A stretch of 48,351 bases of DNA from an uncultured Clostridia bacterium (lineage in GTDB: Bacteria; Bacillota; Clostridia; Oscillospirales; Ruminococcaceae), in assembly GCA_944382845.1 (NCBI GenBank), contig CALWNN010000064.1:1-48351 (forward strand). The letters are read 5' to 3'. A program made the translations under genes and the position numbers. Position 1 is the stretch's first letter, and each line of letters opens with the position of its first letter. The notes beneath the pieces are model-generated. The model made no database searches. It saw nothing but the letters and a program-made list of their open reading frames with translations, and was not told the DNA's origin. This document shows, piece after piece, positions 5,177-47,100 of this stretch.

Positions 5177-5296
5177 CTTCCGGGAAAAGTTGCCCCTGTA
5201 ACTGCCGGAAGGATCATCGGTGAAAGTATCATAAACATACTCAAAGAGGAAGGAATTGATATTCCTGTTTCGGAAGGAGGCGAGAGTCATGGATAA
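5177..5296 (+). pseudogene. dpaA: 3' remnant of dipicolinate synthase subunit A
   Basis: In the frame preceding dpaB, 39 codons plus TAA encode LPGKVAPVTAGRIIGES and onward to EGGESHG. This matches the C-terminal end of DpaA/SpoVFA, which typically has a LPG-VAP-TAG segment. The stop codon overlaps the dpaB start (ATGGATAA), as in intact dpaAB operons. Upstream the frame meets a stop at 5156-5158 in AT-rich non-coding DNA, so the N-terminal ~250 residues, including the nucleotide-binding domain, are missing. The family call rests on a short stretch, but the position and overlap support it. Confidence 0.75.
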
Positions 5297-5873
5297 GCTT
5301 AAAGGAGCAAGGGTCGGTTTTGCCATGTGCGGTTCATTCTGCACATTTGAACGGGCTTTTAAAGCGGCAAGGCGACTTGTTGAGCTTGGATGTGATGTAA
5401 CGCCTATAATGTCGTTTAACTCAGCCTCTATCGACAGTCGTTTCGGAAAGGCTTCGGAGAATATTGAACAAATTGAAAATATCTGTGGCAAAAAGGTCGT
5501 TATGACTATTGCCGACGCCGAGCCCATAGGCCCGAAAAAGTTGTTTGATATCCTTGTAGTTGCGCCGTGCACATCAAATACTTTAGCTAAGCTTGCTCTT
5601 GGAATAACAGACACGCCGGTCACTATGGCGGTAAAAAGTCATGTGCGAAATATGAAGCCTGTTGTTATTGCAATTTCTACAAACGACGCACTTGGCGCTT
5701 CCGCCAAAAATATCGGCTATCTTCAGAACACAAGAAATTTTTACTTTGTTCCTTATTCACAGGACGATTTTGAAGCTAAACCGTTTTCTATGGTTGCCCA
5801 TTTTGAACTTATCCCTCATACTATCTCAGCCGCTCTTGAAGGCAGACAGCTTCAGCCTATAATAATTTGTTAG
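5289..5873 (+). CDS. dpaB: Dipicolinate synthase subunit B
   Basis: Flavoprotein-like subunit of dipicolinate synthase, which makes the spore-core chelator from dihydrodipicolinate. It has 194 residues, close to the usual ~200. The N-terminal segment GARVGFAMCGSFCTF and the central VVAPCTSNTLAKLALGITDT are characteristic of this subgroup of the flavoprotein family, and it ends EGRQLQPIII. I chose ATG 5289 because GGAAGGAGG (5272-5280) sits 8 bases upstream; a longer in-frame start lies inside the dpaA remnant. With dpaA truncated here, DpaB activity would need a subunit A encoded elsewhere. Confidence 0.9.
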   Translation: MDKLKGARVGFAMCGSFCTFERAFKAARRLVELGCDVTPIMSFNSASIDSRFGKASENIEQIENICGKKVVMTIADAEPIGPKKLFDILVVAPCTSNTLAKLALGITDTPVTMAVKSHVRNMKPVVIAISTNDALGASAKNIGYLQNTRNFYFVPYSQDDFEAKPFSMVAHFELIPHTISAALEGRQLQPIIIC

Positions 5874-6000: not shown

Positions 6001-6153
6001 TCTGAATGGAACCCCGCCTCCCACAGGAGGCGGATCATCCCACAGGAGGCGGATCATCCCACAGGAGGCTGATCATCCCACAGGAGGCGGATCATTCCAC
6101 AGGAGTCAGGCCTGCTGATTATTCAGCAGGGGGACATCGTCGACAAGGTTATA
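6001..6153 (+). repeat. Intergenic modular repeat A, copy 1 (3' part plus tandem array)
   Basis: Shares with the other copies the TCTGAATGGAA segment, the CTGCTGA/TCAGCAG terminal hairpin and the closing GGGGGACATCG-CGAC-GGTTATA end. The 5' hairpins are absent. Inside is a tandem array of a 19-bp unit (6020-6110). Same orientation as all other copies. Confidence 0.75.
6020..6110. repeat. Tandem repeat of a 19-bp unit, about 4.8 copies
   Basis: Unit CCCACAGGAGGCGGATCAT, with single changes in units three and five. It sits where other copies of the modular repeat have single hairpins, so it probably arose by local duplication within the repeat. Confidence 0.85.
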
Positions 6154-6183
6154 TTTTTTAATAAAAAAACATACAAAATGCGG

Positions 6184-11662: not shown

Positions 11663-11817
11663 AAATCGTCGCCGTGGAACTTTGCTCCTCAATTTTTCAG
11701 TGGGGGATTAAACCACCACTGAAAGTCTGAATGGAATCCGACTCTACAGAAGGCAGACCTGCTGAATAATCAGCAAACCTGCCGTTTAGGCAGGGGGACA
11801 TCGGCGACTTGGTTATA
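11663..11817 (+). repeat. Intergenic modular repeat A, copy 2
   Basis: Begins at AAATCGTCGCCG and lacks the first hairpin. It contains the TTTCAGTGG/CCACTGAAA stem, CTGAATGGAATCC, two terminal hairpins (TGCTGA/TCAGCA and CTGCC/GGCAG) and the end GGGGGACATCGGCGACTT then GGTTATA. GTCGCCG near the start pairs with CGGCGAC near the end. The terminal TTATA contains the stop codon of the flanking permease gene on the minus strand. Confidence 0.85.
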
Positions 11818-12652
11818 CAAATTGAAAGCCCAAAATTCCTGCGGTACATATTATACTTCCTGCAATATTTAACGGCGACGGCTTTTGCTCCTTGCTGAAA
11901 AGCCCGATAATCAGAGCGACAAGAAGTATCATAGGCTGAATAAAGGAATAGTTTGCAAGGCTTGTTGCCGCAACAGCGTTTTCACCCATTAGTCCAAGAG
12001 CATTTGGCAGTTTACAGCCCACAACAATAGCAACTCCCTTCACTCCTTCGGGACTGTTTTTTGCAATATTCCATGGTTTTGCCATAGGAACAAGCAGGAT
12101 TGCCAACAGAACAAGTGCAAAAAACAAGGTCATTGTTGTGGAAATATATTCCTCGGCTTTGACCATTACAAATCCATATCCAAATTTAGCCGTAAGATAA
12201 AGCACAAGCGAAATTGCAATTTTCAGGTAGTGGACTCTTCCCCGCCCTGTTGAAGCAATTATAACAAGACCTGCGGCAGTTATAGCTATAAATATAATCT
12301 TAAGCCAGCTGAGCGCCAAGTCATATATAAGAACATCAGAAAAATACGAGACAAAAAGAATTATTCCAAGCCACGCTTTAAGTTCAAAAACAGACATTTC
12401 CTTTAAAATTGCAGCTCCGGTAAAAAACTCTATATATTTACATAGCGCTATAAGTACGATGCAGATAAAAGATTGAGGGCAAATGGTAAACGTCCTGTCT
12501 GCAAAAGGAAGAAGTAGTCCAAGAAAAGGGACAGTGCCTGCCGCCATTAAAAATGTAAGCTCATAGCCGTTATAGCCGGCCTTGCTCACTGCATACTTAT
12601 CATTAAATGCGCAAATTGAATACAGCGCAACAACCATTAACATTGTAGCCAT
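11813..12652 (-). CDS. EamA/DMT-superfamily transporter
   Basis: A 279-residue protein with about ten membrane spans in two repeats, as in the drug/metabolite transporter family. It is the last gene of the vitamin-uptake operon, 32 bases after the ECF S gene, with AAAGGAG 7 bases before its ATG. It could export or import a related small molecule, but the sequence does not identify it. The C-terminus ends GILGFQFV, and its TAA lies within the end of repeat copy 2. Confidence 0.85.
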   Translation of the reverse strand: MATMLMVVALYSICAFNDKYAVSKAGYNGYELTFLMAAGTVPFLGLLLPFADRTFTICPQSFICIVLIALCKYIEFFTGAAILKEMSVFELKAWLGIILFVSYFSDVLIYDLALSWLKIIFIAITAAGLVIIASTGRGRVHYLKIAISLVLYLTAKFGYGFVMVKAEEYISTTMTLFFALVLLAILLVPMAKPWNIAKNSPEGVKGVAIVVGCKLPNALGLMGENAVAATSLANYSFIQPMILLVALIIGLFSKEQKPSPLNIAGSIICTAGILGFQFV

Positions 12653-12684
12653 AAATACTCTCCTTTAAAACGTCGTATTTTAGC

Positions 12685-13374
12685 TTATTTCAGCTTCAAG
12701 CCGTATTTTTTTACAATCCTCGAAAGTGTTCTGCAAAGAGGAGTTCCTATAAGAAAAAGAAATATAATATTAGAAATCATATAGGAAGCTGTAACAGGAA
12801 TAGCAGAAATGACCAGTGTTGAAAATCTTGCGGGTATAAACTTTCCGTCAATCCATAGAACTGACCAGCAATCCATAATAAGGGAATATACTATTCCTGA
12901 GAGTCCTCCGTAAATGTAAAGAAAAACTTTGGACTTATAGAATTTTTCAGAAAACACTCCTGCAAGAAATCCAATAATTCCCCACGAAAGCATTTGAAAA
13001 GGAGTCCATGGACCTTGTCCGAAATAAATATTAGAAACTAAAGCCGAAAGAGCGCCTGTCATGAATCCACACTGTCTGCCAAGACTCATGCCTGTTACTA
13101 TTACGATTGCAGTTACCGGTTTAAAAAAGGGCAGCGGCGCAAAAAGAAACCGTCCCGCAACTGAAATACCTGTCATCACAGCAGCCAATGCAAGAAGCTC
13201 GGTTGCGGCTTTTCTTTCAAAGCTTTCAAAAAAAGGCAGAATTACAGCAAAAGCAGCCAAAATGGAAAACAAAGCAAAATATTTTCCGCCTGAAAATATA
13301 GAAGCAAGCAGCGCACATACAACTACAACAATTACACTTGCAAAAGAAAACACTTTACTCTTCAAGGGCTTCAC
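12685..13374 (-). CDS. ECF transporter S component (possible corrinoid type)
   Basis: Membrane substrate-binding subunit of an energy-coupling-factor importer, 229 residues with six to seven spans. The central segment (VSNIYFGQGPWTPFQMLSWG, about residues 113-132) looks like the signature of one S-component family, but I cannot tie that family firmly to a vitamin. The start is GTG at 13374, overlapping the ATPase gene by 20 bases. Its own T and A components lie just upstream, so this is a dedicated (group I) ECF transporter. The substrate is inferred as cobalamin-like only from the two upstream surface proteins. Confidence 0.85.
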   Translation of the reverse strand: MKPLKSKVFSFASVIVVVVCALLASIFSGGKYFALFSILAAFAVILPFFESFERKAATELLALAAVMTGISVAGRFLFAPLPFFKPVTAIVIVTGMSLGRQCGFMTGALSALVSNIYFGQGPWTPFQMLSWGIIGFLAGVFSEKFYKSKVFLYIYGGLSGIVYSLIMDCWSVLWIDGKFIPARFSTLVISAIPVTASYMISNIIFLFLIGTPLCRTLSRIVKKYGLKLK

Positions 13375-15019
13375 CGCCTTTACAAGCCTTTACGACCTGC
13401 TCACAGGTAACACAGCCGTCAATTATTCCTTTTGATATTCGCCTTGCGGCAGTTGTATAAAAATCCACAGAGCAGAAAAATTCTTGAGGAGCTCCTACGC
13501 CTGCAATTTTTCCGTCAGACAATAGTCCACACCTGGACGCAAACTCACCGGCAAATTCAACATCGTGAGTCACCGCCACAATAGTTATTCCGTTTTCAAC
13601 AAGTTCGCTTAAAAATTTTCCAAGTTCATACTTTGCAAAACTGTCTATTGCTTTTGTAGGCTCATCAAGTATGAGTATCTCCGGCTGAGACAGCAAAACC
13701 TTTCCAAGAGCGGCTTTCTGACGTTCACCACCTGACAAATCAAGAGGATTTCGGGTTGAAAATTCTTTTATCTTAAGCTTTTCCATAATCATTTCAATCC
13801 GTTTTACAGCTTCATGCCTGTTAAGTCCTAAAACTTTACAGCAACAATAATAATCATCAATAAGCGTGGTTTTAACGAAACAATATGCCGGATCTTGTGG
13901 CAGTACAGAAAGGACCCCGTTGTAAAGGCTATTGCCTTTATAGCTTTTTATAGGCTTATTTAATATTTTTATAGTCCCACTGTATGGTCTTGCCGTACCT
14001 GCCATAACATTAACGGCTGTCGTCTTTCCTGTACCGTTAGAACCGAGCAGACAAAAAAATTCATTTTTATAAATTTCAAGATTTAAATCACGAAGAACAT
14101 CATTTAAATCCTTCCCGTACCTGAACATGATATTTTTCATTTCGATTACAGGTTCAGCTTTATCAGAATCTTTATTAGAAGGCTTGTTTATTTGCTTTAA
14201 ATTCAGATCCGTCAGATATTTTCTGCCTTCTTTAACTGAAATAGGGATCATTCCTTTCCCCTCTGTCTGCGAGAAAATTCTTGCAGAAGCCGGCAGGAGA
14301 AATTCAAAATCGGTTTTCACAATGCTTTGGGAAACCTCTTGAGCTGTTCCGCAAGCAGTTATCATGCCGTTATTGAGAAGAAGTATCTTGTCTGATGCGC
14401 CGAAAAGTTCTTCAAGACTATGTTCGGCAATAATTATAGTTTTTCCAAGTGTTCTGTTTATCTTAATTAAAAGACTTATGAAATTTTCTGTTGCTATTGG
14501 ATCAAGCTGGGCTGTTGGCTCGTCAAGAATAAGTAATTCAGGATCCATCGCAAGCACAGACGCAAGAGAAAGAATTTGTTTCTGACCGCCTGAGAGTTGT
14601 GAGGTATTTTCCGTAAGCCAGCTGTCAATTCCAAAAAAAGCTGCAATTTCGGCAATTTTCAACCTTATCCGTTCAGCGTCTGCTCCAATATTTTCAAGTC
14701 CGAATGCAAGTTCATGCCATACCTTATCAGTGACAACCTGATCTTCAGGAGACTGCATCACAAAACCGATTTCCCTTGCACTCCGCAGCATTGAACCTTC
14801 CTTTAAGTCCTTTGATTTAAATAAAATTTTGCCTGACATTTCACCGAAGGGTGCAATTTCAGGCTTCAGAAGCTGAAGAAGGGTCGTTTTGCCGCAGCCT
14901 GACCTTCCGCAGACGAGAACAAAATCCCCCTTATTAACTGTAAAGCTGATTTCCTTTAAAGCAAAGCTTTCATTATCAGGATATTTAAAATTCAAATCTT
15001 CGATATGTAATATTTCCAT
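13355..15019 (-). CDS. ECF transporter ATPase, fused A and A' domains
   Basis: A 554-residue cytoplasmic ATPase with two complete ABC domains. Domain 1 has Walker A GRSGCGKTT, signature LSGGQKQ and Walker B LLILDEPTAQLD. Domain 2 has GSNGTGKTT, LSGGERQ and ILILDEPTKAID. Both sites look catalytically competent. A Lys-rich linker near residues 265-290 joins them. The ATG at 15019 lies inside the end of the T-component gene (28-base overlap), behind GGAG. Fusion of A and A' is common in CbrU-type and other dedicated ECF systems. Confidence 0.93.
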   Translation of the reverse strand: MEILHIEDLNFKYPDNESFALKEISFTVNKGDFVLVCGRSGCGKTTLLQLLKPEIAPFGEMSGKILFKSKDLKEGSMLRSAREIGFVMQSPEDQVVTDKVWHELAFGLENIGADAERIRLKIAEIAAFFGIDSWLTENTSQLSGGQKQILSLASVLAMDPELLILDEPTAQLDPIATENFISLLIKINRTLGKTIIIAEHSLEELFGASDKILLLNNGMITACGTAQEVSQSIVKTDFEFLLPASARIFSQTEGKGMIPISVKEGRKYLTDLNLKQINKPSNKDSDKAEPVIEMKNIMFRYGKDLNDVLRDLNLEIYKNEFFCLLGSNGTGKTTAVNVMAGTARPYSGTIKILNKPIKSYKGNSLYNGVLSVLPQDPAYCFVKTTLIDDYYCCCKVLGLNRHEAVKRIEMIMEKLKIKEFSTRNPLDLSGGERQKAALGKVLLSQPEILILDEPTKAIDSFAKYELGKFLSELVENGITIVAVTHDVEFAGEFASRCGLLSDGKIAGVGAPQEFFCSVDFYTTAARRISKGIIDGCVTCEQVVKACKGGEALEE

Positions 15020-15879
15020 TTCAAATACTCCGTCGCTTCAATTATAGTTGGTAAAAATGCTGTGATTCCGTACAAAATATAGGTCGATACCGCCATGAAG
15101 TTTACGGGAAGTTCAGTTACAGATGGATAAAATTCAATTCCGACCTTTCCAGAAATTACGGCTATTATCTCTGCAACAAAGGTTATCAAACTGACCACGG
15201 CCAAAACCACATCGGAAACTCGCAGAAAAAACCTTGAGTAAGCTGTACTCCCCTTCATACCATAGCCTCTTGCTCTCATTGACCTTGAGATTATAACAGA
15301 CGACTCAACCGATTTAGCCGAAACAGACATTAAGATTCCCAATTTAAATTTCAGACGGTCAAAAAAGCTGTCAGATGTCAACAATCCGGCAGTTTTCTGT
15401 GCATTTTCACAAGCAGAAAAATCCTTTTTCAATCTTGGGACAAACCTTAACGCCATTGAGATTGTTAAGCCTAATCTCGGAAAAAACCTGCCTGCAAGAT
15501 AAACAATTTTCTCGTCGTCAATAATTTCGGCGGCGCTTGCAAACCATATTATTGAGGCAAGAATTGCGGCGGCAATGGAAGCCCCGCACTTGAAGGCTTC
15601 CAGAGTCACCGGATTGCCGTTCATAAAAAACAACGGAGTTTCGCCATTATGGGAAAAGAGCGGGTTAGTTATCCAGATAAGGATAAATAAAATCAGGTAG
15701 AACCAGATATCAGAAACCATTCTTCTTTTTCTGATAAGAGAAAGAAAAATCACTCCGCCAAGCAATGCCTCTAACCGGACAACAGGATTTACTATAAACA
15801 TACTTCCAAAAAGTATTGCCATATAATAAACAACAAGAGCGAATGGATGAAAGCTGTAAAATCTGAAATGTATTCTCAT
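14992..15879 (-). CDS. ECF transporter T component
   Basis: Transmembrane coupling subunit of 295 residues. Membrane spans fill the first 115 residues and the C-terminal third. The coupling region includes FPRLGLTISMALRFVPRL and the family's SRSMRARGYG motif, which docks on the ATPases. I placed the start at ATG 15879 because GGAGG lies 8 bases upstream and the upstream gene ends at 15884; an earlier in-frame ATG (15897) overlaps that gene. Part of the five-gene surface-capture/import block. Confidence 0.92.
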   Translation of the reverse strand: MRIHFRFYSFHPFALVVYYMAILFGSMFIVNPVVRLEALLGGVIFLSLIRKRRMVSDIWFYLILFILIWITNPLFSHNGETPLFFMNGNPVTLEAFKCGASIAAAILASIIWFASAAEIIDDEKIVYLAGRFFPRLGLTISMALRFVPRLKKDFSACENAQKTAGLLTSDSFFDRLKFKLGILMSVSAKSVESSVIISRSMRARGYGMKGSTAYSRFFLRVSDVVLAVVSLITFVAEIIAVISGKVGIEFYPSVTELPVNFMAVSTYILYGITAFLPTIIEATEYLKWKYYISKI

Positions 15880-15883
15880 CGCT

Positions 15884-16432
15884 TCATCCTCCGACATCCT
15901 GTCCGAGTTCAAGACTGTAAACCCACTCAACCACATCTCCATCGGAAAGCTTGTAATTTCCGCAGGAATTTTCAGGCTGTTGTCCATTCACAAGATATAT
16001 CCACCCGGCCGTCTCTCCGCAATCAAATTCGTACAAGTAATTAATCCCCTGAATATAAACACTGTTGTAAATATTTTGATCCGATCCTTGATATTCCATC
16101 TGAATTTTATTATACCTTGTGACCCTGCTAAGCATATCAAAAACAGTATCCCCATCCCGGAGTACATATTCCGTAGGCTCTAAAATAATCCCATCACCGA
16201 TTAGCTTACGTTGACGGTCGTTTAAAAATTCAGATTTTTCAAGCGCCTTTTCACAATTAATCGAAAAAGTAACCGTTTTAGAATTTTCACTGATATCGTC
16301 TATATGCGTCAGGTAATATTCGTCAACAGTCTGAAATTCCGTTCCCTTTATAAGAATTACAACAGCAATAAAGATAACAAACAAAACAACAATATCTTTT
16401 TTGGCTCCTTTCAGACTGCTCACCTCTTTCAT
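15884..16432 (-). CDS. Membrane-anchored DUF4430 (transcobalamin C-terminal-like) protein
   Basis: A 182-residue protein with an N-terminal membrane anchor (VVLFVIFIAVVILI, residues 15-28) and an extracellular part. Residues ~85-178 match the DUF4430 pattern: LRDGDTVFDML, then FDCGETAGWIYLVNGQQPE, then LSDGDVVEWVYS. DUF4430 is the same fold as the beta domain of human intrinsic factor and transcobalamin. The next gene upstream, 3 bases away, encodes a separate alpha/alpha-toroid protein, the fold of the other half of those carriers. A role as the small clamp of a surface corrinoid receptor is inference. Confidence 0.85.
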   Translation of the reverse strand: MKEVSSLKGAKKDIVVLFVIFIAVVILIKGTEFQTVDEYYLTHIDDISENSKTVTFSINCEKALEKSEFLNDRQRKLIGDGIILEPTEYVLRDGDTVFDMLSRVTRYNKIQMEYQGSDQNIYNSVYIQGINYLYEFDCGETAGWIYLVNGQQPENSCGNYKLSDGDVVEWVYSLELGQDVGG

Positions 16433-16435
16433 ATT

Positions 16436-17875
16436 TTACAAATCATATTTCTTTTTTGTCTTAACCAGAATCACTCCGCAGGCAACAACAACTACAATCA
16501 GACTTACTGCTATTATAATACGTCTTGTTTCACTGTTTACCCTTGCTCTCATTTCCTCAAGACTCCCTGCATTTGTAACCAGGCTTTTGTCCTTGTCGTT
16601 TATGCTGTTATAACGCTCTTCCAGATCCTCTATCTTATCCTTATCGCCGATACCCACTCCGGAATTATAAAGCTTATATATTTCTTTGTCCAATTGGGTT
16701 ATCTCCTCACGAAGTTCCTCCGCCTTAGAAATAGCCGAACTTAACGCAATTTTAATAACATCATAATCATCAGGCTTTGCCTGCTCAAGGGTCTGTAAAA
16801 GTCTTTCAAGAGTTTTGATATCCGACGCATGAGTTTCAGTTGAAAACTGTCTGACAAGCTCTCTGTCTTCATTTGAAAATTCCAAAGCATTCGTCTCTTG
16901 TTCGTTATTAAATGTATACAGTCTTTCTCCGGCTTCGTATTTTTTCAAAGCCGCAATAGCAAGCAATGCTTGCTGTGTCGCCATACCGTTAATTTCAGAA
17001 TCTGATTTTACATGACAAAATCCCAGATCTTTAATTTCATATTTTAACATTGCGTCAACGACCGATATACCGTTTTTCACAAATCTTTCATCATTATCGG
17101 GATCAATTCCAACAGAGCAAAGCGCAATTACAGCCTGAGCGCAACTTTCACAGTTCTCAACTCCATAGCTCATAAAGCCGCCGTTTTCAAGCTGATTTTC
17201 CGATAAAAAGCTTACGGCCTTCTCTATTGTTTTACTTATTTTTTCTTCTTCTGCGTAGGGAGAAAGGGCGATAATCACCATGGCTGTCACATCAGGATCT
17301 CCCGAATTTCCGAAAAGAGTAAAGCCTCCGTCGTCAAGCTGGCTTTTAACAAGAGCGTCTACAAGTTCACGACGTTTGTCTTCTGACTCCACATTTGCGG
17401 CATCCATTGCTATTAATCCCCAGATATATGCAGAAAGCCCTTGTCGTTCGAAATCACGCAAGGTCACCCCGTCTTTTGCAATATTGATTCCGTCAATATC
17501 CGTCGGATCCCCTCCGCAAGCAAGATAAGCAAGGGTGATTCTGTGCCATTCGGTGGACTTGACAACATCAAGCTTGTTTTCAGTTTCATATTTTTGTATA
17601 ACGTAAGCTGAAAGAGCGGATCTGTACTTATCAAAATCTCCTTCAACTCCAAGTTGATTTAATGCGATAACAAGCCAATCAGACGATGGTGTTCCTGCTT
17701 TGTCGATAAATTCTTCAGAAAATGTTATCTCTTCGGTTTGTCCGAAAGCCCCATTCAACGCAGATTTTTCAGCGTTTTCAAGCTGCTCCTCATCAGCGGC
17801 AAAAGCACGTATTCCGCCAAAAGAAACTGTCAAGACCAACGTAAAAGCCAAAAGCTTAGTAAATAATTTGATCAT
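16436..17875 (-). CDS. Anchored surface protein with alpha/alpha-toroid (cyclase/intrinsic-factor-like) fold
   Basis: A 479-residue exported protein: signal peptide (residues 1-26, ending GGIRAFA), a helical toroid domain (~50-325), a coiled-coil stalk (~375-445) and a C-terminal membrane span (IIIAVSLIVVVVACGVIL) with basic tail. The toroid shows prenyltransferase/squalene-cyclase-type repeats: QLDDGGFTLFGNSGDPDVTA, QLENGGFMSYGVENCESCAQ and a LGFCHVK variant. No DxDD cyclase motif is seen, so it is more likely a binding protein than an enzyme. Intrinsic factor and transcobalamin alpha domains share this fold. Its start codon sits directly at the stop of the NaPRT gene. Confidence 0.83.
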   Translation of the reverse strand: MIKLFTKLLAFTLVLTVSFGGIRAFAADEEQLENAEKSALNGAFGQTEEITFSEEFIDKAGTPSSDWLVIALNQLGVEGDFDKYRSALSAYVIQKYETENKLDVVKSTEWHRITLAYLACGGDPTDIDGINIAKDGVTLRDFERQGLSAYIWGLIAMDAANVESEDKRRELVDALVKSQLDDGGFTLFGNSGDPDVTAMVIIALSPYAEEEKISKTIEKAVSFLSENQLENGGFMSYGVENCESCAQAVIALCSVGIDPDNDERFVKNGISVVDAMLKYEIKDLGFCHVKSDSEINGMATQQALLAIAALKKYEAGERLYTFNNEQETNALEFSNEDRELVRQFSTETHASDIKTLERLLQTLEQAKPDDYDVIKIALSSAISKAEELREEITQLDKEIYKLYNSGVGIGDKDKIEDLEERYNSINDKDKSLVTNAGSLEEMRARVNSETRRIIIAVSLIVVVVACGVILVKTKKKYDL

Positions 17876-17876
17876 A

Positions 17877-19307
17877 TCAGCCTTTCAGCCTTTCTAACAT
17901 CTCCGTTTTCTTCTTCCAAAGCTTAACAGACAGGTCAACATAATAAGAATGTGGATTTTCAAATCTTTTCACCTCGTCCCAAAGAGTGTCAAGCTGTTCA
18001 GCGCAGTATTGTTGAATTTCTTCAATTTCAGGAAGCTTATAAACCAGCTTTCCGTTTCTGAAAACAGGCACCTGAAGTTCTTTAGCAACAAAATTTTCAA
18101 TAGTCTTGGTTTTCCACACTGCAAACTGGTCGAAAATCTGCAAGGGTTTAGTTTCATCAATTATTTCGTCATGAATGCAGATATAGTCTGCAATCGCTTT
18201 ACCGCTTTCCTTATCAAAAATTCTGTATACCTTTTTAAAATGTGGGTTGGTTATCTTGCCTATATTCTCGCTAACCTTGATTTTAGGCACAATAACGCCG
18301 TTTTCTTCAACTGCCGCAAGCTTATACACTCCGCCGAATACAGGAGAACTGCTTGCGGTGATAAGTCTTTCCCCAACTCCGAAGGTGTCTATCTTTGCGT
18401 CCTGCATCATCAGGTCACGGATAAGATATTCGTCAAGAGAATTTGAAGCTGTTATCTTACAGCAGGAAAGTCCTGCATCATCAAGCATTTTACGTGCTTT
18501 TTTAGAAAGATATGAAATATCCCCCGAATCAAGACGAATAGCAAAATCAGTTATACCTTGTGGAACAAGAACCTCTTTAAAAACTTTAATTGCGTTAGGA
18601 ACACCGCTTTTAAGAGTATTATAGGTATCAACAAGAAGTGTAGCTCCGTGAGGATAGCTTTCACAGTAGGTCTTAAAAGCTTCGTACTCGCTGTCAAACA
18701 TCTGAACCCACGAATGAGCCATGGTTCCACCGGCAGGAACGCCAAAAAGCCTATCTGTAAGCGTGCATGCTGTTCCCTTGCAACCGCCTATAAAGGCAGC
18801 TCTTGCGCCGATAGTTGCGCCATCAGCGCCCTGGGCACGTCTTGAACCAAATTCAAGAACAGTTCTTCCCTGTGAAGCCCTGACGATACGGCTTGCCTTT
18901 GTTGCAATCAAGGATTGATGATTAAATTGCAAAAGCAAAAATGTTTCAATAAGCTGAGCCTCAATTGCAGGAGCCCTTACGGTAATTACCGGCTCGTGAG
19001 GAAAGATAGGAGTTCCTTCCGGAACAGCATAGATATCCCCTGTGAATTTGAAATCTTTCAGATAGGAAAGAAAACCCTCGTCAAAAATGCCTTTATTCCG
19101 CAGAAAATCAATATCATCGTCTGTAAATTGAAGTTTCTGAATATACTCGCATATTTGTTCAAGCCCCGCAAAAACAGCATAACCGCCTCCGTCGGGAACA
19201 GAGCGGAAAAACACATCAAAATAAGTTATCTTATTTGACAAGCCATTTTTGAAATATCCGTTTGACATTGTAAGCTCATAGAAGTCGCAAAGTAAAGTAT
19301 GATTCAT
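17877..19307 (-). CDS. pncB: Nicotinate phosphoribosyltransferase
   Basis: Makes nicotinate mononucleotide from nicotinate and PRPP in NAD salvage. 476 residues, the usual length. N-terminus LLCDFYELTMSNGYF, then FGSRRAQGADGATIGARAAF with the phosphate-binding region, SHAWVQMF, and IRLDSGDISYLSKKARKM. It is the first gene of the operon, and its stop abuts the start of the toroid protein gene. Nicotinate mononucleotide is also the donor CobT uses to activate cobamide lower ligands, which may or may not explain the linkage. Confidence 0.95.
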   Translation of the reverse strand: MNHTLLCDFYELTMSNGYFKNGLSNKITYFDVFFRSVPDGGGYAVFAGLEQICEYIQKLQFTDDDIDFLRNKGIFDEGFLSYLKDFKFTGDIYAVPEGTPIFPHEPVITVRAPAIEAQLIETFLLLQFNHQSLIATKASRIVRASQGRTVLEFGSRRAQGADGATIGARAAFIGGCKGTACTLTDRLFGVPAGGTMAHSWVQMFDSEYEAFKTYCESYPHGATLLVDTYNTLKSGVPNAIKVFKEVLVPQGITDFAIRLDSGDISYLSKKARKMLDDAGLSCCKITASNSLDEYLIRDLMMQDAKIDTFGVGERLITASSSPVFGGVYKLAAVEENGVIVPKIKVSENIGKITNPHFKKVYRIFDKESGKAIADYICIHDEIIDETKPLQIFDQFAVWKTKTIENFVAKELQVPVFRNGKLVYKLPEIEEIQQYCAEQLDTLWDEVKRFENPHSYYVDLSVKLWKKKTEMLERLKG

Positions 19308-19351: not shown

Positions 19352-19522
19352 AAATCGGAGCAAAGCGTTGATAATTACATCTCCTTCGGAGCTATACATC
19401 TCTTTCAGAGCTGTGCTTAATCACGTTGCGACGATTGTAATCTGTCGCTGACTGCAGCAAGCTGCAGATAGGAGGCCGACCTGCTGAATAATCAGCATGG
19501 GGACATCGGCGACTTAGTTATA
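19352..19522 (+). repeat. Intergenic modular repeat A, copy 3
   Basis: Starts TAAATCGGAGCAAAGCG and ends ACATCGGCGAC then TTAGTTATA. It contains CTTAATCACGTTGCGACGAT, a replaced middle hairpin (CTGCAG-CAAG-CTGCAG) and the TGCTGA/TCAGCA stem. GTCGCTGA pairs with TCGGCGAC through a G-U. It occupies the 5' flank of the NaPRT operon on the minus strand. The flanks GTTTATT and AATAAAC are mutual inverted repeats. Confidence 0.85.
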
Positions 19523-19592
19523 ATAAACGATAATAAACGTTCTGCGTTTATTATACCATAGATTCATTTCTGTTGCAACCTGAATAAAGCAA

Positions 19593-19781: not shown

Positions 19782-21095
19782 TTACTTTCTCTTCTTTGTT
19801 GCAACTACAGCAGCAGCAGCAAAAGCAACTCCGCCGAGAGCTACAGCAACACCTGTTGCAGGAACTTCGTCCTTGTCAGTAGCAGGTTCTTCTGTCGCAG
19901 GCTCTTCTGTTGTAGGTTCTTCAGGTGTTGTACCCTGATTCTGGAGAGCTTCTTCAAGCTGAGCTTCGAGTTCAGCCTTTTCAGCTTCAAGAGCAGCGAT
20001 CTGATCCTGGAGATCCTTTATTGTAGCAGCGTCAGTTTCATTCTGAGCGAGAGCTTCTTCAAGCTGAGCCTTAAGGTCAGCAATTTCCTGATCCTTCTTG
20101 TTAAGCTGTTCAGCTGTTGCAGCGTCATAAGCAGCGATAGCATCGTTAAGTGCCTTCTTTGCAGCGTCAAGATCAGCGCTTACCTTTTCTACAGCAGCCT
20201 TAGCAGCAGCAAATGCTTCTGTATCGGCAACGTCACCATCCTGAAGAGCGTCGAATGCAGCCTGAGCAGCAGCAAGCTCGTCAGCAAGAGCATCAATTTC
20301 TTCAGCAGCAGCGTCAGCCTGAGCAAGAATATCCTTAGCATTTGTAAGAGCCTCAGCAGCAGCGTTCATATCAGCAATTGTATCTGATACTGTAAGTTTT
20401 CCGATTTCAGCCTGAAGTGCAGCAAGGGCATCAGCAGCAGCTTCTTCTCTTGCAACTTTATTCATAGCAGCAGTATATTCAGCTTGAACATATACCTCTG
20501 TAGCAGCCTCGTCAATGAGAGCTATAGAAGAACCATCATCAAAGTTAATGGTAAACTCAGTAATATCAATTGACGGATTTGATCCCCACCAATATCCAAA
20601 CTGTATTGGACCTGCATTAATCATCTGTCCATATGTTTCACTTTCCACATCTTCATCAAGAATAAGGAATGGTGTTTCTGTTCCCTCAGGAAGTTCATAC
20701 GTAAACGAATACGGAGTATCTACAGAACCACCTTCAGCAACTTCTGCCCAACCTATTGAAATTTCATCAGTACCGTCACCAGCACAGTCAATCTGTGTCC
20801 ATGTATCTCCAGCCTGAATACCGATTCCGAATCCGCCGCCAAACCAGCCTTCGCCCCAATTTCCTGTGGATGGCTTAATTGTAAAATCAATAGATGCTAC
20901 ATTTGCATCAATAACTCCTTCAAATGCAGCAAGCTCAACCTGAACCATATTGGTGCCATTCGTATCCAATGTGATCGGAGCATACTTTGGAAGTCCGGCG
21001 ATTTCTTCAGCGCTTCCTGTTACTGCAAAAGCAGATAAAAGAGAAGCAGAAAGAGCGCCAGCCGAAAGAACGGCTAAAACTTTTTTCATTTTCAT
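19782..21095 (-). CDS. Sortase-anchored surface protein with CBM-like and coiled-coil domains
   Basis: A 437-residue exported protein. Signal peptide at residues 1-29. Residues ~38-200 form a beta-rich domain with many Trp/Tyr (NWGEGWFGGGFGIGI, FGYWWGSNPSIDI), resembling carbohydrate-binding modules of ruminococci. Residues ~205-385 are Ala/Glu-rich coiled coil, followed by a TTEEPATEEPATE linker, sorting motif VPATG, a hydrophobic stretch and KKRK. AGGAGG precedes the first ATG; a second ATG two codons later is also possible. A binding role towards a polysaccharide is inference. Confidence 0.8.
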   Translation of the reverse strand: MKMKKVLAVLSAGALSASLLSAFAVTGSAEEIAGLPKYAPITLDTNGTNMVQVELAAFEGVIDANVASIDFTIKPSTGNWGEGWFGGGFGIGIQAGDTWTQIDCAGDGTDEISIGWAEVAEGGSVDTPYSFTYELPEGTETPFLILDEDVESETYGQMINAGPIQFGYWWGSNPSIDITEFTINFDDGSSIALIDEAATEVYVQAEYTAAMNKVAREEAAADALAALQAEIGKLTVSDTIADMNAAAEALTNAKDILAQADAAAEEIDALADELAAAQAAFDALQDGDVADTEAFAAAKAAVEKVSADLDAAKKALNDAIAAYDAATAEQLNKKDQEIADLKAQLEEALAQNETDAATIKDLQDQIAALEAEKAELEAQLEEALQNQGTTPEEPTTEEPATEEPATDKDEVPATGVAVALGGVAFAAAAVVATKKRK

Positions 21096-25449: not shown

Positions 25450-25637
25450 AAGTCGGAGCAAAGCGTGATACAGATGTCTGCTTGTCAGCAGACAGGCTTA
25501 ATCACGTTGCAACGATTGCAATCTCCGCCGAGGAGCTTTGCTCCCCAGTTTTTCATTGGCGGATCAAGACCCCCACTGAAAAACTGAATGGAATCCTGCC
25601 GAATACTCGTCAGGGGGACATCGGCGACTTTGTTATA
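25450..25637 (+). repeat. Intergenic modular repeat A, copy 4 (longest full copy)
   Basis: Order of parts: AGTCGGAGCAAAGCGTGAT; hairpin GTCTGC/GCAGAC; CTTAATCACGTTGCAACGAT; GGAGCTTTGCTCC stem; CCCCCACTGAAAAACTGAAT; CTGCCGAATACTCGTCAG; GGGGGACATCGGCGACTT; TTATA. CGCCGA pairs with TCGGCG. Its final TTATA contains the radA stop codon on the minus strand, and its 5' end lies 47 bases upstream of the rplU -35 box. Confidence 0.88.
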
Positions 25638-27012
25638 TATTTTGAATCTCCCCGATCGCCTGTCTGATTGAAGAAACTCCGGCAATTTTAATATCGCTTT
25701 TTGAAAGATCAAGCCCTTTCAGAGCCTGTTTTGGCAGGATTATCTTTTCAAATCCCATGCGTTTTGCTTCTCGTATACGTTGCAACGCGTGAGAAATGTT
25801 TCTCAGTTCTCCCCCGAGACCTATCTCTCCGAAAGCAACTATCTTATCGTTTATAACCTTATCGGTAAGCGACGAATAGAGCGCAAGGGCAACCGGCAGA
25901 TCCGCCGCAGGCTCGTCAAGCCGCAGTCCGCCCACGATATTTATATAAACGTCAAGATTTCCGAAAGCAAATCCCAGTCGTTTTTCAAGGACCGCTATTA
26001 TCAAATACAATCTGTTGTAATCAAATCCGGTAGCCGTCCTTCTCGGAGCCGAAAATCCGCTTTTTGTCACAAGCGCCTGAATCTCTGCCATCAAAGGTCT
26101 TGAGCCCTCCATAACTGCGCTTACACAGCATCCGGAAACATCTGTAGGTCTGCCTGAAAGAAGCATCATAGAAGGATTTTCAACTTCCTCAAGCCCTGCG
26201 TTTGCCATTTCAAAGACTCCTATTTCGTTTGTTGAGCCGAAACGGTTTTTGGCGGCTCTTAATATCCTATAGGAAAGGTTTTTCTGTCCCTCAAAGTAAA
26301 GCACCGCGTCAACTATATGCTCCATTACCTTTGGTCCTGCGATAGCTCCGTCCTTGTTTACGTGACCTACAATAAACATCGGTATCTCCTCGCTTTTTGC
26401 AGTTCTCATAAAAAGAGACGTACATTCTCTTACCTGAGTTATACTTCCGGGAGCCGAAGAAATATCTCTTATACCCATTGTCTGGATAGAGTCGATAACC
26501 GCTATTTCAGGCTTTTCAGACGCTATTGTATCCGCAATAGCTTCTGCGTCTGTTTCTGCGAGAAGATAGAGGTTTTCGGTATTTACTCCAAGTCTGTCCG
26601 CACGGAGTTTTATTTGTCTTACAGACTCTTCTCCCGAAACATACAAAATAGTATGGTCCTCGCCAAGGTACTGACATATCTGAAGAAGAAGGGTTGACTT
26701 TCCTATTCCCGGCTCGCCTCCCAAAAGGACAAGGCTTCCCTTTACAAGTCCTCCGCCAAGTACTCTGTCAAGCTCTTTCATGCCTGTTTTATATCTTATC
26801 TCGTCACGGCTTGCGTCAACGGAATTTATCCCGACAATTTTTTCTGCGGCATTTGCAGCTTTTCTTGCGGCGGTCTTTGAGACCGAGCTTTTTGCCGCCA
26901 CCTCAACCTCCTCAAAGGTGTTCCAGTTTTCGCAGGAAGGGCATTTACCGTTCCATTTTGCGCTTTCATATCCGCACTGGTTGCAGACGTAAACTGTTTT
27001 GGTCTTTGCCAT
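25633..27012 (-). CDS. radA: DNA repair protein RadA
   Basis: A 459-residue recombination ATPase/helicase. N-terminal zinc finger with four cysteines (CNQCGYESAKWNGKCPSC), RecA-like core with Walker A GGEPGIGKSTLLL, the RadA-specific KNRFGSTNEIGVF motif (~residues 255-267), and a C-terminal Lon-like domain (GGLRLDEPAADLPVALAL). The gene is 9 bases downstream of pcrA. The stop codon is supplied by the end of repeat copy 4, so the extreme C-terminus (EIQNI) may have been altered by that insertion. Confidence 0.96.
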   Translation of the reverse strand: MAKTKTVYVCNQCGYESAKWNGKCPSCENWNTFEEVEVAAKSSVSKTAARKAANAAEKIVGINSVDASRDEIRYKTGMKELDRVLGGGLVKGSLVLLGGEPGIGKSTLLLQICQYLGEDHTILYVSGEESVRQIKLRADRLGVNTENLYLLAETDAEAIADTIASEKPEIAVIDSIQTMGIRDISSAPGSITQVRECTSLFMRTAKSEEIPMFIVGHVNKDGAIAGPKVMEHIVDAVLYFEGQKNLSYRILRAAKNRFGSTNEIGVFEMANAGLEEVENPSMMLLSGRPTDVSGCCVSAVMEGSRPLMAEIQALVTKSGFSAPRRTATGFDYNRLYLIIAVLEKRLGFAFGNLDVYINIVGGLRLDEPAADLPVALALYSSLTDKVINDKIVAFGEIGLGGELRNISHALQRIREAKRMGFEKIILPKQALKGLDLSKSDIKIAGVSSIRQAIGEIQNI

Positions 27013-36460: not shown

Positions 36461-36541
36461 ACCTGAGCAAAGCGTGATAAGGATGTCTGCTTATCGGCAG
36501 ACCTGCCGTTTTGGCTGGGGGACATCGGCGACTTGGTTATA
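36461..36541 (+). repeat. Intergenic modular repeat A, copy 6 (short form)
   Basis: An 81-base copy: CTGAGCAAAGCGTGATAAGG, hairpin GTCTGC/GCAGAC, hairpin CTGCC/GGCTG, GGGGGACATCGGCGACTT, GGTTATA. Flanks GGGTTTTA (left) and TAAAACCC (right) are inverted repeats of each other. Confidence 0.87.
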
Positions 36542-36577
36542 AAACCCTACAATCATTTTTTATAAGGAGAGATTTTT

Positions 36578-45274: not shown

Positions 45275-45336
45275 TATAACAAATAAACAAAAACCACCAT
45301 GCTTTGATATGCATATGTAAAAAACAGGAGATCAAA

Positions 45337-47100
45337 ATGAAAGCAAAAAAAATCACAAGGATCATATCGGTGATCCTCACGGCATTGGTGATTCTTATCG
45401 CCTGTGTTCCGTACACAATCGCAGCAGACAATCTAAAGGGCGTTGTTACAGGGATAACTACATACTTAAATGTTCGGAGCGGTCCAAGCACAACCTCCAC
45501 AGTTATAGGAAAGCTTTACAACAATGACAGCGTAACCGTTTTAGGGTCAAGCGGCAACTTTTACAAGATTTCGTATGTTTCCGGGGGACAAACTATTACG
45601 GGATATGCTTCACAGGATTACATAAAAGTAACTTCTGTTTCATCAGGCGCAACAGACGCAGAGTTTGAAAAATACCTTGACAGTCAAGGATTTCCCGAAA
45701 GTTATAAGCCGGCTCTCAGGGCGCTGCATGAGCTTCACCCGGAATGGATTTTTACCGTTCTCGACACTGGGCTTGACTGGAATACAGTTGTAAAAAACCA
45801 GATGGTTTTAGGAAGAAACCTTGTCCACTCAAGCAGCGCAGAATCATGGAAGTCCATGGAAAAGGGCGCATATAATTTTACTACAGGAAGTTATGTAGGG
45901 CTTGACGGGAATAGCTGGGTAGCCGCATCCGAGGCTATCGTAAAATATTATCTTGACCCAAGAAATTTTCTTACCGAATCAACAATACTAATGTTTGAAA
46001 ATCTTTCATACAATTCCAGCGTACAGACGGAAAGCAATGTCAAGACAATACTTTCAAATTCATTTATGAACGGAAGTTATACGACTCCCGACACCAAAAA
46101 ATCTTATACATATTCCAAGACTTTTATGGATGCTGCTAAGCTTTCGGGAGTAAGTCCTTATCATCTTGCCGCAAGGGCCTTGCAGGAACAGGGTACCAAT
46201 GGTACTTCCCTGTCTTTCGGAACAGTTTCGGGATACACCGGATATTTCAATTTCTTCAATATCCAGGCCTATGCCGCAAACGGTTTGACCGCCGTTCAGA
46301 ACGGAGCAAAATATGCTTCAACCACAAACTCAAAGTATTCGCTCCCATGGACCAACCAATACAAAGCCATTACGGGAGGTTCTGTCTGGATAGGTACAGG
46401 ATACATAGATAAGCTTCAAGACACTTTATATTTGCAGAAGTTTGACGTTGTAGACGGAGGCAATGGATATTACGCTCATCAGTACATGACCAATGTACAG
46501 GCCGCGGAATCCGAAGCCAAAATTATGAAAAAAGCATATCCGGACAAGGTATTCAATTCAAAGCTTGAGTTTGTGATTCCCGTATACAAAAATATGCCTG
46601 ATACAGCTTGTACAAAGCCTGCCTCAACTGCCAGCAACAACAATCTCCTTGACAGCATAACCGTAGGTTCATATAAGTTAAATCCTTCTTTTAACAGGTA
46701 CACTTATTCGTACAGCCTTACTGTACCGGCAAATATAAGTTCTGTTACGCTTTCGGCAAAAGCAAACAATTCTTCCGCCGTTATCAGCGGCATCGGAAAG
46801 ATCACGCTCAAAGAGGGAGCTAACAAGATAACCATAAGCTGCAAATCTCCAAGCGGACTTGTAAGGAATTATACCGTTACAATAACAAGAGAAAAATCTA
46901 CTGTTACTCGAGGCGACGCCACAGGCGACGGAAAGGTAAACATCAACGACGTTCTCACAATTGTAAGGTATATTAACGGTCTTACATCTCTTAACAGTAC
47001 AGCTCTTAGTGCGGCTGACGTTACAGACGACGGAAAAGTAAACATCAACGACGCACTTACTATTGTGCGTTATATAAACGGTTATATAACAAAACTATAA
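45337..47100 (+). CDS. Dockerin-bearing SH3b-glucosaminidase (cell-wall hydrolase)
   Basis: A 587-residue secreted protein. Signal peptide (~1-34, ending YTIAADN); SH3b domain (TYLNVRSGPSTTSTVIGKL); glucosaminidase-like domain (~130-400: YYLDPRNFLTESTILMFENL, SPYHLAARALQEQGTNGTSL); cadherin-like beta-sandwich (~440-520); type I dockerin at the C-terminus with two calcium loops (GDATGDGKVNINDVLTIV and ADVTDDGKVNINDALTIV, each ending VRYING). I chose ATG 45337 (CAGGAG 6 bases upstream). A dockerin on a peptidoglycan hydrolase suggests surface tethering through a cohesin. Confidence 0.92.
   Translation: MKAKKITRIISVILTALVILIACVPYTIAADNLKGVVTGITTYLNVRSGPSTTSTVIGKLYNNDSVTVLGSSGNFYKISYVSGGQTITGYASQDYIKVTSVSSGATDAEFEKYLDSQGFPESYKPALRALHELHPEWIFTVLDTGLDWNTVVKNQMVLGRNLVHSSSAESWKSMEKGAYNFTTGSYVGLDGNSWVAASEAIVKYYLDPRNFLTESTILMFENLSYNSSVQTESNVKTILSNSFMNGSYTTPDTKKSYTYSKTFMDAAKLSGVSPYHLAARALQEQGTNGTSLSFGTVSGYTGYFNFFNIQAYAANGLTAVQNGAKYASTTNSKYSLPWTNQYKAITGGSVWIGTGYIDKLQDTLYLQKFDVVDGGNGYYAHQYMTNVQAAESEAKIMKKAYPDKVFNSKLEFVIPVYKNMPDTACTKPASTASNNNLLDSITVGSYKLNPSFNRYTYSYSLTVPANISSVTLSAKANNSSAVISGIGKITLKEGANKITISCKSPSGLVRNYTVTITREKSTVTRGDATGDGKVNINDVLTIVRYINGLTSLNSTALSAADVTDDGKVNINDALTIVRYINGYITKL

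What the first reader, a model, noticed from the sequence alone, without database searches (positions are those of the whole stretch)
11813..19307. Split intrinsic-factor-like surface receptor wired to a dedicated ECF importer
Two adjacent genes encode, as separate membrane-anchored proteins, an alpha/alpha-toroid domain (16436-17875) and a DUF4430 domain (15884-16432). In human intrinsic factor and transcobalamin these two folds are fused and close around cobalamin. Here they are translationally packed with ECF T, A/A' and S genes. Seen: the folds' motifs, the overlaps, the anchors. Inferred: the two proteins form an extracellular clamp that captures a corrinoid or related large vitamin and hands it to the ECF S component. 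I do not know of a described Gram-positive system of this layout.
Basis: partly seen in the sequence, partly recalled or inferred. Interest (0 to 1): 0.88.

Follow-up and report, generated by a model that had tools for sequence, protein, structure and literature searches.

The report
Bacterial vitamin B12 capture-and-import operon
A gut bacterium carries an operon that most likely catches vitamin B12 on the cell surface, using proteins related to the ones humans use, and hands it to a membrane pump; a system of this kind was predicted in 2007 but we found no experimental test of it.

Summary
On the minus strand lie pncB, a secreted C-terminally anchored toroid, a membrane-anchored DUF4430 protein, ecfT, fused ecfA/A' and ecfS, with gaps of 1-4 nt or short overlaps.

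A corrinoid substrate is well supported. The S component's best solved relative is CbrT, the cobalamin S component (profile E 8e-17). A broad DUF4430 profile reaches the beta-domains of transcobalamin and, weakly, intrinsic factor. 22 of 74 toroid hits in relatives are fused to DUF4430, 15 in intrinsic-factor order. Of 61 related loci scanned, 34 carry a riboswitch, always cobalamin class. In 198 family genomes DUF4430 and CbrT-type S occur together in 98, singly in 7. The genome has a MetH-type enzyme but no cobalamin-synthesis methylases or BtuC-type permease.

Limits: the window's operon has no riboswitch; the toroid resembles terpene cyclases, not transcobalamin, by sequence; structure predictions failed, so clamp and hand-off are inferred.

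Novelty is lower than claimed: Burroughs et al. 2007 predicted Gram-positive operons joining transcobalamin-like domains, toroids and CbiO/CbiQ for B12 scavenging. Added here: the CbrT link, the riboswitches, the split form.

The parts
16436..17875 (-). secreted alpha/alpha-toroid protein, N-terminal signal segment, C-terminal membrane anchor; proposed alpha half of the corrinoid clamp
   Evidence: relatives; natural fusions
15884..16432 (-). DUF4430 (homologue of the transcobalamin beta-domain) with N-terminal membrane anchor; proposed beta half of the clamp and partner of the S component
14992..15879 (-). EcfT, transmembrane coupling protein (likely start ATG at 15879 rather than 15987)
13355..15019 (-). 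EcfA/A' fused, two ATPase domains
   Evidence: TIGR04520 above cut-off
12685..13374 (-). EcfS, CbrT-class substrate component (PF07155; best PDB match 6fnp_A CbrT)
17877..19307 (-). pncB, nicotinate phosphoribosyltransferase; first gene of the local unit, seen there only in this genus; not part of the conserved system
11813..12652 (-). EamA-like transporter gene after ecfS; not found in relatives' loci
   Evidence: E 0.001, below cut-off; 0 of 100 loci

Best explanation
The operon encodes an uptake system for cobalamin or related corrinoids. The secreted toroid and the DUF4430 beta-grasp protein, each tethered to the outer face of the membrane, are the split equivalents of the alpha and beta domains of transcobalamin and intrinsic factor and together capture a corrinoid. 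They pass it to the CbrT-class S component, and the EcfT-EcfAA' motor drives import, mainly to supply a MetH-type methionine synthase. Shown by computation: gene content, hydrophobic anchors, DUF4430 homology to the transcobalamin beta-domain, CbrT class of S, near-obligate co-occurrence of DUF4430 with CbrT-type S, cobalamin riboswitches on many related loci, and no cobalamin-synthesis methylases or BtuC-type permease found in this genome. Inferred: that the two proteins form one clamp, that the ligand is bound between them, and the hand-off to S.
For: S: best PDB match 6fnp_A (CbrT), E 2e-8 alone and 7.9e-17 as a profile of 30, next match 2.9e-4; PMC5997447 (passages) identifies 6FNP as ECF-CbrT, which transports cobalamin and cobinamide and was not competed by hemin. 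DUF4430: a profile of 44 members hits transcobalamin-2 at 9.8e-7, transcobalamin-1 at 1e-6 and intrinsic factor at 0.01, each in its C-terminal domain. Fusions: 22 of 74 toroid hits share a frame with DUF4430, 15 toroid-first; by eye the 12 named fusions have two hydrophobic segments between the domains, consistent with both facing outward. Co-occurrence in 198 genomes: both 98, S only 3, DUF4430 only 4, neither 93. Short CbrT-type S: 44 of 47 have DUF4430 at most 72 nt upstream; outside the family 12 of 19 loci have it adjacent, two of these at weak E (0.004, 0.001), and 3 more a toroid. Riboswitches: 34 of 61 loci scanned with all Rfam carry a cobalamin-class riboswitch and none another metabolite class, many of the 61 having been picked for or against a riboswitch; 22 of 64 S hits have a listed RF00174 within 14 kb upstream against 0.15 expected. 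Host: one B12-binding protein, MetH-type; one TP_methylase, the 16S rRNA enzyme; no FecCD permease. The genome's second DUF4430 gene follows a (repeat-interrupted) cobalamin riboswitch, as in the congener, where it is uninterrupted.
Against: The window has no riboswitch and pncB heads the local unit. Toroids resemble squalene-hopene cyclases by sequence, and the eukaryotic cobalamin-binding Pfam family was not among the 25 families shown, of 137, for 43 toroid proteins. 27 of 61 loci had no riboswitch at gathering score, including all 9 (picked as negatives of a profile search) and all 4 plasmid loci. A toroid hit lies near only 33 of 64 long S hits and 0 of 47 short ones. Both structure predictions were interrupted, so no interface or pocket was examined. 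The narrow DUF4430 profile did not reach transcobalamin. The co-occurrence count is not corrected for kinship.
Confidence: 0.78

Rival explanations
1. Same corrinoid importer, but the two extracellular proteins act separately: DUF4430 is the partner of S, and the toroid is an independent capture or tethering protein, so there is no intrinsic-factor-like clamp.
For: DUF4430 lies at most 72 nt before a CbrT-type S in 44 of 47 short-S loci, none of the 47 with a toroid hit within 8 kb; a toroid hit lies near the long S in 33 of 64. Toroid and DUF4430 copies also occur in large anchored proteins.
Against: Toroid and DUF4430 share a frame in 22 of 74 toroid hits, and of 55 named long-S loci with enough upstream sequence 50 have DUF4430 and 46 a toroid; in transcobalamin both domains hold one cobalamin (PMC1796856, passages).
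Confidence: 0.25
2. The system imports a nicotinate-type compound, because pncB is the first gene of the local unit.
For: pncB ends 1 nt before the toroid gene in the window and precedes the operon in the one congener.
Against: Apart from that congener (two records of one contig) no other of 100 loci, many cut short, has pncB; S is CbrT-like; riboswitches on related loci are cobalamin class.
Confidence: 0.04
3. The ligand is another large tetrapyrrole or metal complex, such as heme, or a corrinoid precursor other than cobalamin.
For: An ECF importer for heme is in print (PMC7299338, title and abstract start in a search listing only). One solved DUF4430-like protein, 3u7z, is labelled a putative metal binding protein.
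Against: Cobalamin riboswitches and CbrT similarity; hemin did not compete with cobalamin in ECF-CbrT (PMC5997447, passages). Cobinamide is not excluded and is also a CbrT substrate.
Confidence: 0.06

Closest known systems
Transcobalamin-like SLBB clade of low-GC Gram-positive bacteria (Burroughs et al. 2007, PMC1796856; abstract, passages and section 7 part 1 of 2 read)
   Same: [quoted passage not shown] B12 scavenging proposed there.
   Different: Here the toroid and the beta-grasp domain are separate proteins. The CbrT-class S component and the cobalamin riboswitches are added; the terms riboswitch, ECF, CbiM, S component and split have 0 occurrences in that paper.
ECF-CbrT of Lactobacillus delbrueckii (6FNP; PMC5997447, passages read)
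   Same: S component of the same class; motor of T plus two ATPases.
   Different: The passages read describe CbrT itself as the binding component and mention no extracellular partner; its gene sits in nrdJ-cbrS-cbrT-pduO and it is predicted to share one motor with other S components. Whether cbrS is a DUF4430 gene was not checked.
Human transcobalamin and gastric intrinsic factor
   Same: Beta-domain homology by profile; toroid plus beta-domain, in the same order in 15 of 22 fused relatives.
   Different: Single chains, taken up in humans by endocytosis (recalled, and PMC12075633 passage); here two membrane-tethered chains beside an ABC-type importer. The toroid was not linked to the human alpha-domain by sequence.
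ECF genes on Lactiplantibacillus plantarum pMF1298-5 (PMC6722938, passages read)
   Same: Homologous T, A/A' and S genes, presumably the CbrV, CbrU and CbrT of that paper, followed by a toroid gene (annotated fucose-binding lectin II) and a DUF4430 gene, on a plasmid with other cobalamin genes.
   Different: Gene order T-A-S-toroid-DUF4430. In the passages read the authors name only the three ECF genes.

Membership tests
CbrT-class cobalamin ECF transporter | S component related to CbrT more than to other solved S components | tested here: met
   6fnp_A E 7.9e-17, next 4hzu_S 2.9e-4; weak control: another annotated S gene on pMF1298-5 (its end cut) gave no PDB match at E<=1
CbrT-class cobalamin ECF transporter | ECF motor: T plus two ATPase domains | tested here: met
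   the window's T ORF itself matched no Pfam model
CbrT-class cobalamin ECF transporter | cobalamin regulation or cobalamin gene neighbours | tested here: inconclusive
   no riboswitch in the window; present on many related loci and before the second DUF4430 gene of this genome
CbrT-class cobalamin ECF transporter | binds and transports cobalamin | not testable with these tools
   needs binding and uptake assays
[quoted passage not shown]
   PF14478 E 1e-16; broad profile hits transcobalamin-1 and -2, intrinsic factor marginally
Transcobalamin-like SLBB uptake operon (Burroughs 2007) | secreted or surface anchored | tested here: met
   hydrophobic N- and C-terminal segments; hydropathy only, no dedicated predictor
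Transcobalamin-like SLBB uptake operon (Burroughs 2007) | alpha/alpha toroid fused or in the operon | tested here: met
   fusions
Transcobalamin-like SLBB uptake operon (Burroughs 2007) | host lacks cobalamin synthesis enzymes | tested here: met
   one TP_methylase, the 16S rRNA enzyme; genome 99.82% complete; other synthesis genes not searched
Transcobalamin / intrinsic factor proper | single chain with alpha-domain related by sequence | tested here: not met
   two chains in the window; toroid profile finds cyclases, no transcobalamin at E<=10; eukaryotic cobalamin-binding family not among the 25 of 137 families shown
Transcobalamin / intrinsic factor proper | corrinoid held between the two domains | not testable with these tools
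BtuCDF cobalamin importer | FecCD-type permease | tested here: not met
   0 of 2 genomes of the genus, 13 of 14 control genomes positive
Terpene cyclase / squalene-hopene cyclase | intact DxDD motif (importance of the motif recalled) | tested here: not met
   first D in 41 of 43, third-position D in 43 of 43, fourth position D in 0 of 43 (aligned to the cyclase)

The most novel reading that the evidence does not exclude
In ECF transporters the S component itself is the binding protein. Here the transcobalamin-like beta-grasp protein behaves as a near-obligate extracellular partner of CbrT-type S components across a bacterial family (98 of 101 S-bearing genomes). Optional toroids, wall-anchored copies and dockerin-bearing copies would form a capture-and-relay chain that carries corrinoid through the Gram-positive wall, or even from a cellulosome, to the importer. 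Human intrinsic factor would be a soluble descendant or cousin of that relay.
Probability: 0.45. Interest if true: 0.8.

Novelty: new member of a known kind. Interest (0 to 1): 0.6.

Why it matters
A 2019 survey called the identification of B12 transporters in many gut genomes an open problem (PMC6593275, passages). This operon ties a 2007 prediction to a biochemically proven transporter class and names a small testable unit: DUF4430 plus CbrT. If right, bacteria and their human host catch the same vitamin with homologous proteins, and an ECF importer has a dedicated extracellular binding partner. Dockerin-bearing members would also link vitamin capture to fibre-degrading surface machinery.

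Tried and rejected
Nicotinate uptake (from pncB): rejected because pncB is local to the genus. Enzymatic toroid: disfavoured, the cyclase motif is not intact and the protein looks secreted. A hidden riboswitch in the window: profile search at full sensitivity gave only E >= 0.29. A narrow DUF4430 profile (A2) against solved structures found no transcobalamin; a broad one did. The eukaryotic cobalamin-binding family was not shown for 43 toroid proteins. The Rodionov 2009 paper cited for CbrT is not held; its content is known here only through citing papers. Paper searches for DUF4430, transcobalamin with ECF, CbrT, transcobalamin-like, cobalamin riboswitch with surface protein, the 2007 paper's title words and dockerin with B12 listed no title or abstract start that reports an experiment on this system; the library holds open-licence papers only, and most listed papers were not opened.

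Full report
WHAT IS THERE. On the minus strand of the window lie pncB (17877-19307), a toroid gene (16436-17875), a DUF4430 gene (15884-16432), ecfT (14992-15879), fused ecfA/A' (13355-15019), ecfS (12685-13374) and an EamA-like gene (11813-12652). From pncB to ecfS the gaps are 1, 3 and 4 nt and the overlaps 28 and 20 nt. The toroid protein has a hydrophobic N-terminus and a C-terminal hydrophobic segment with a basic tail, the DUF4430 protein an N-terminal hydrophobic segment. By the usual positive-inside rule both folded domains face outward (inference).

THE S COMPONENT. Its nearest solved relative is 6fnp_A, E 2e-8 by single sequence and 7.9e-17 by a profile of 30 relatives; the next chain is 4hzu_S at 2.9e-4. 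PMC5997447 (passages) states that 6FNP is ECF-CbrT and that it transports cobalamin and cobinamide, with no competition by hemin. A homologue from a Lactiplantibacillus plasmid also hits 6fnp_A best (1.8e-9). A weak control, another annotated S gene of that plasmid with its end cut, hits nothing at E<=1.

THE DUF4430 DOMAIN. A narrow profile found no transcobalamin. A broad one of 44 members hits 3u7z (named putative metal binding protein RUMGNA_00854, E 1.6e-16), transcobalamin-2 (9.8e-7), transcobalamin-1 (1e-6) and, marginally, intrinsic factor (0.01), each vertebrate protein in its C-terminal domain. PMC4350170 (passages) also names the transcobalamin C-terminal domain DUF4430.

THE TOROID. 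Its profile hits squalene-hopene cyclases (E 8e-12) and no transcobalamin at E<=10; the eukaryotic cobalamin-binding family was not among the 25 families shown, of 137, for 43 members. So the toroid fold is supported; a specific tie to the human alpha-domain is not. The cyclase DxDD motif is incomplete: its last D is absent in 43 of 43.

FUSION. In the 198-genome family survey, 22 of 74 toroid hits share an open frame with DUF4430 (judged by equal frame length within 4 kb), 15 toroid-first as in intrinsic factor and 7 DUF4430-first. Twelve named loci hold toroid-DUF4430 fusions, whose alignment shows by eye two hydrophobic segments between the domains, as if the C-terminal anchor of one and the N-terminal anchor of the other had been joined. 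This links the two window proteins functionally.

GENE NEIGHBOURHOODS. Same 198 genomes: toroid in 63, DUF4430 in 102, S in 63 (64 hits). 51 of 64 S hits have DUF4430 within 6 kb on the same strand and 33 of 64 a toroid hit within 8 kb. One search kept the best 80 of 522 stretches found by S alone, most titled Clostridia, Oscillospiraceae, Lachnospiraceae or Ruminococcus; 55 of the 80 reach at least 6.5 kb before S (repeated contigs not dropped here), and 50 of these have DUF4430 and 46 a toroid. A common order is riboswitch, larger DUF4430 protein, toroid, small DUF4430, T, A/A', S. Four of the 80 loci repeat contigs already among the 20 loci and were dropped. pncB appears only in the congener's contig (two records of it), EamA in none of 100 loci.

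A SMALLER UNIT. Seven loci with a riboswitch-led short DUF4430 gene were fetched, and all seven hold a short CbrT-type S; the one compared with solved structures hits 6fnp_A best (5e-12). Family-wide there are 54 short-S hits, 47 not overlapping the long ones; 44 of the 47 have DUF4430 at most 72 nt upstream, and 0 of 47 a toroid hit within 8 kb. Taking both S types, DUF4430 and S occur together in 98 of 198 genomes, S alone in 3, DUF4430 alone in 4, neither in 93 (not corrected for kinship). Outside the family, 19 of 398 genomes sampled from the phylum have a hit; 12 of the 19 loci have DUF4430 adjacent (two at weak E), 3 more a toroid, 4 neither within the 1.5 kb flanks. In Lactobacillaceae, an L. 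curvatus plasmid has LPXTG-toroid, DUF4430, T, A, S, and L. plantarum pMF1298-5 has T, A, S, toroid, DUF4430; [quoted passage not shown] DUF4430 is not confined to such operons: a Collinsella record has two DUF4430 genes with no ECF gene in the stretch shown, and 19 of 136 family hits lie near neither S nor toroid.

RIBOSWITCHES. 61 loci were scanned with all of Rfam at gathering score: 20 (17 positive; many picked because one search showed a riboswitch), 20 (6 picked for a listed riboswitch, all 6 positive; 14 of the 19 phylum loci, 5 positive), 4 (none), 9 (picked because a profile search had found none; none) and 8 (all 8 picked with a profile hit; 6 positive). In all, 34 of 61 carry a cobalamin-class riboswitch (RF00174, or in L047 RF01689 just over its cut-off) and none another metabolite riboswitch; other hits were tRNAs and one cspA element. 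A sequence profile made from 17 of these riboswitches gave 56 hits on 100 loci and 0 on the reversed sequences. With it, 23 of 34 non-duplicate loci whose operon start lies inside the locus and which hold a toroid or DUF4430 gene have one upstream. In the genome survey 22 of 64 S hits have a listed riboswitch within 14 kb upstream on the same strand, 0.15 expected (the list printed was cut, so 22 is a lower bound).

THE HOST GENOME. 2.14 Mb, 99.82% complete. It has one B12-binding protein, a 797-aa MetH-type protein with homocysteine, pterin and B12 domains, scoring below the full-length MetH cut-off. It has one TP_methylase, the 16S rRNA enzyme, no PduO-type adenosyltransferase and no FecCD permease, where 13 of 14 control genomes have one. 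Other importers (BtuM) and metE were not searched. A second DUF4430 protein (C48:4216-5151, 23.2 bits against a cut-off of 23.8) lies behind a cobalamin riboswitch that is interrupted by a repeat; the congener has the same pair uninterrupted. In this genome, therefore, the riboswitch-led first gene stands apart and the rest of the system follows pncB.

MECHANISM. Best reading: toroid and DUF4430, tethered side by side, close on a corrinoid as in transcobalamin; DUF4430, the part that nearly always accompanies CbrT, passes it to S; T and A/A' drive import for MetH. Capture between the two proteins and the hand-off are inferred. Further copies on sortase-type, S-layer or dockerin-bearing proteins in relatives suggest outposts that feed the membrane pair (inference). 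The window's own organism has dockerins: one follows at 45304-47100.

WHAT IS KNOWN. Burroughs et al. 2007 (PMC1796856; abstract, passages, section 7 part 1 of 2 read; [quoted passage not shown] it proposed B12 scavenging and an origin of the animal proteins from such bacteria. That paper has 0 occurrences of riboswitch, ECF, CbiM or S component. What this work adds is the CbrT class of S, the near-obligate DUF4430-CbrT pairing, the riboswitches, and the split form. A 2025 paper on ECF-CbrT mentions intrinsic factor only as the human comparison in the passages read.

VERDICT. A real and well-conserved corrinoid uptake operon, a new member of a kind predicted in 2007, with new supporting evidence; the clamp itself is untested.

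Noticed in passing
L006 (G000:C48) 5232-5541, minus strand: The cobalamin riboswitch before the genome's second DUF4430 gene is interrupted: profile positions 32-94 match at 5541-5479 and 100-176 at 5304-5232, and the stretch between holds the interspersed repeat also seen in the window. The congener's copy is uninterrupted.
   Followed up: partly
window 6105-6156, 11769-11820, 19474-19525, 25589-25640, 36493-36544: Interspersed repeat family (core TAACCAAGTCGCCGATGTCCCC on the minus strand; the 6105 copy is weaker); one copy overlaps the end of the EamA-like gene, another lies before pncB.
   Followed up: partly
L060, L062, L067, L077, L084, L086, L121 (first gene of the operon): Proteins found by the DUF4430 profile carry a C-terminal dockerin domain in 7 of 10 scanned, the ten having been picked by their C-termini or size; five of the seven also match DUF4430 in Pfam. 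Corrinoid binders docked on a cellulosome would be unexpected.
   Followed up: partly
window 45304-47100: A 598-aa protein with SH3, cadherin-like and C-terminal dockerin domains (Dockerin_1 E 1e-11; repeat seen), so this organism has dockerin-bearing proteins.
   Followed up: partly
L087:15995-17884: In Anaerovorax sp. IOR16 a second operon copy begins at a cobalamin riboswitch with a toroid protein carrying S-layer homology domains.
   Followed up: no
L171:6344-7396 (NZ_CP013155.2): The gene annotated fucose-binding lectin II is a toroid-family protein (family profile E 1e-20) with no Pfam match at E<=0.01; a probable misannotation.
   Followed up: partly
window 19782-21095, minus strand: Protein with a signal-like start, only sub-cut-off Pfam matches and a C-terminal VPATG plus hydrophobic tail, a likely sortase signal (motif recalled; sequence).
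   Followed up: no
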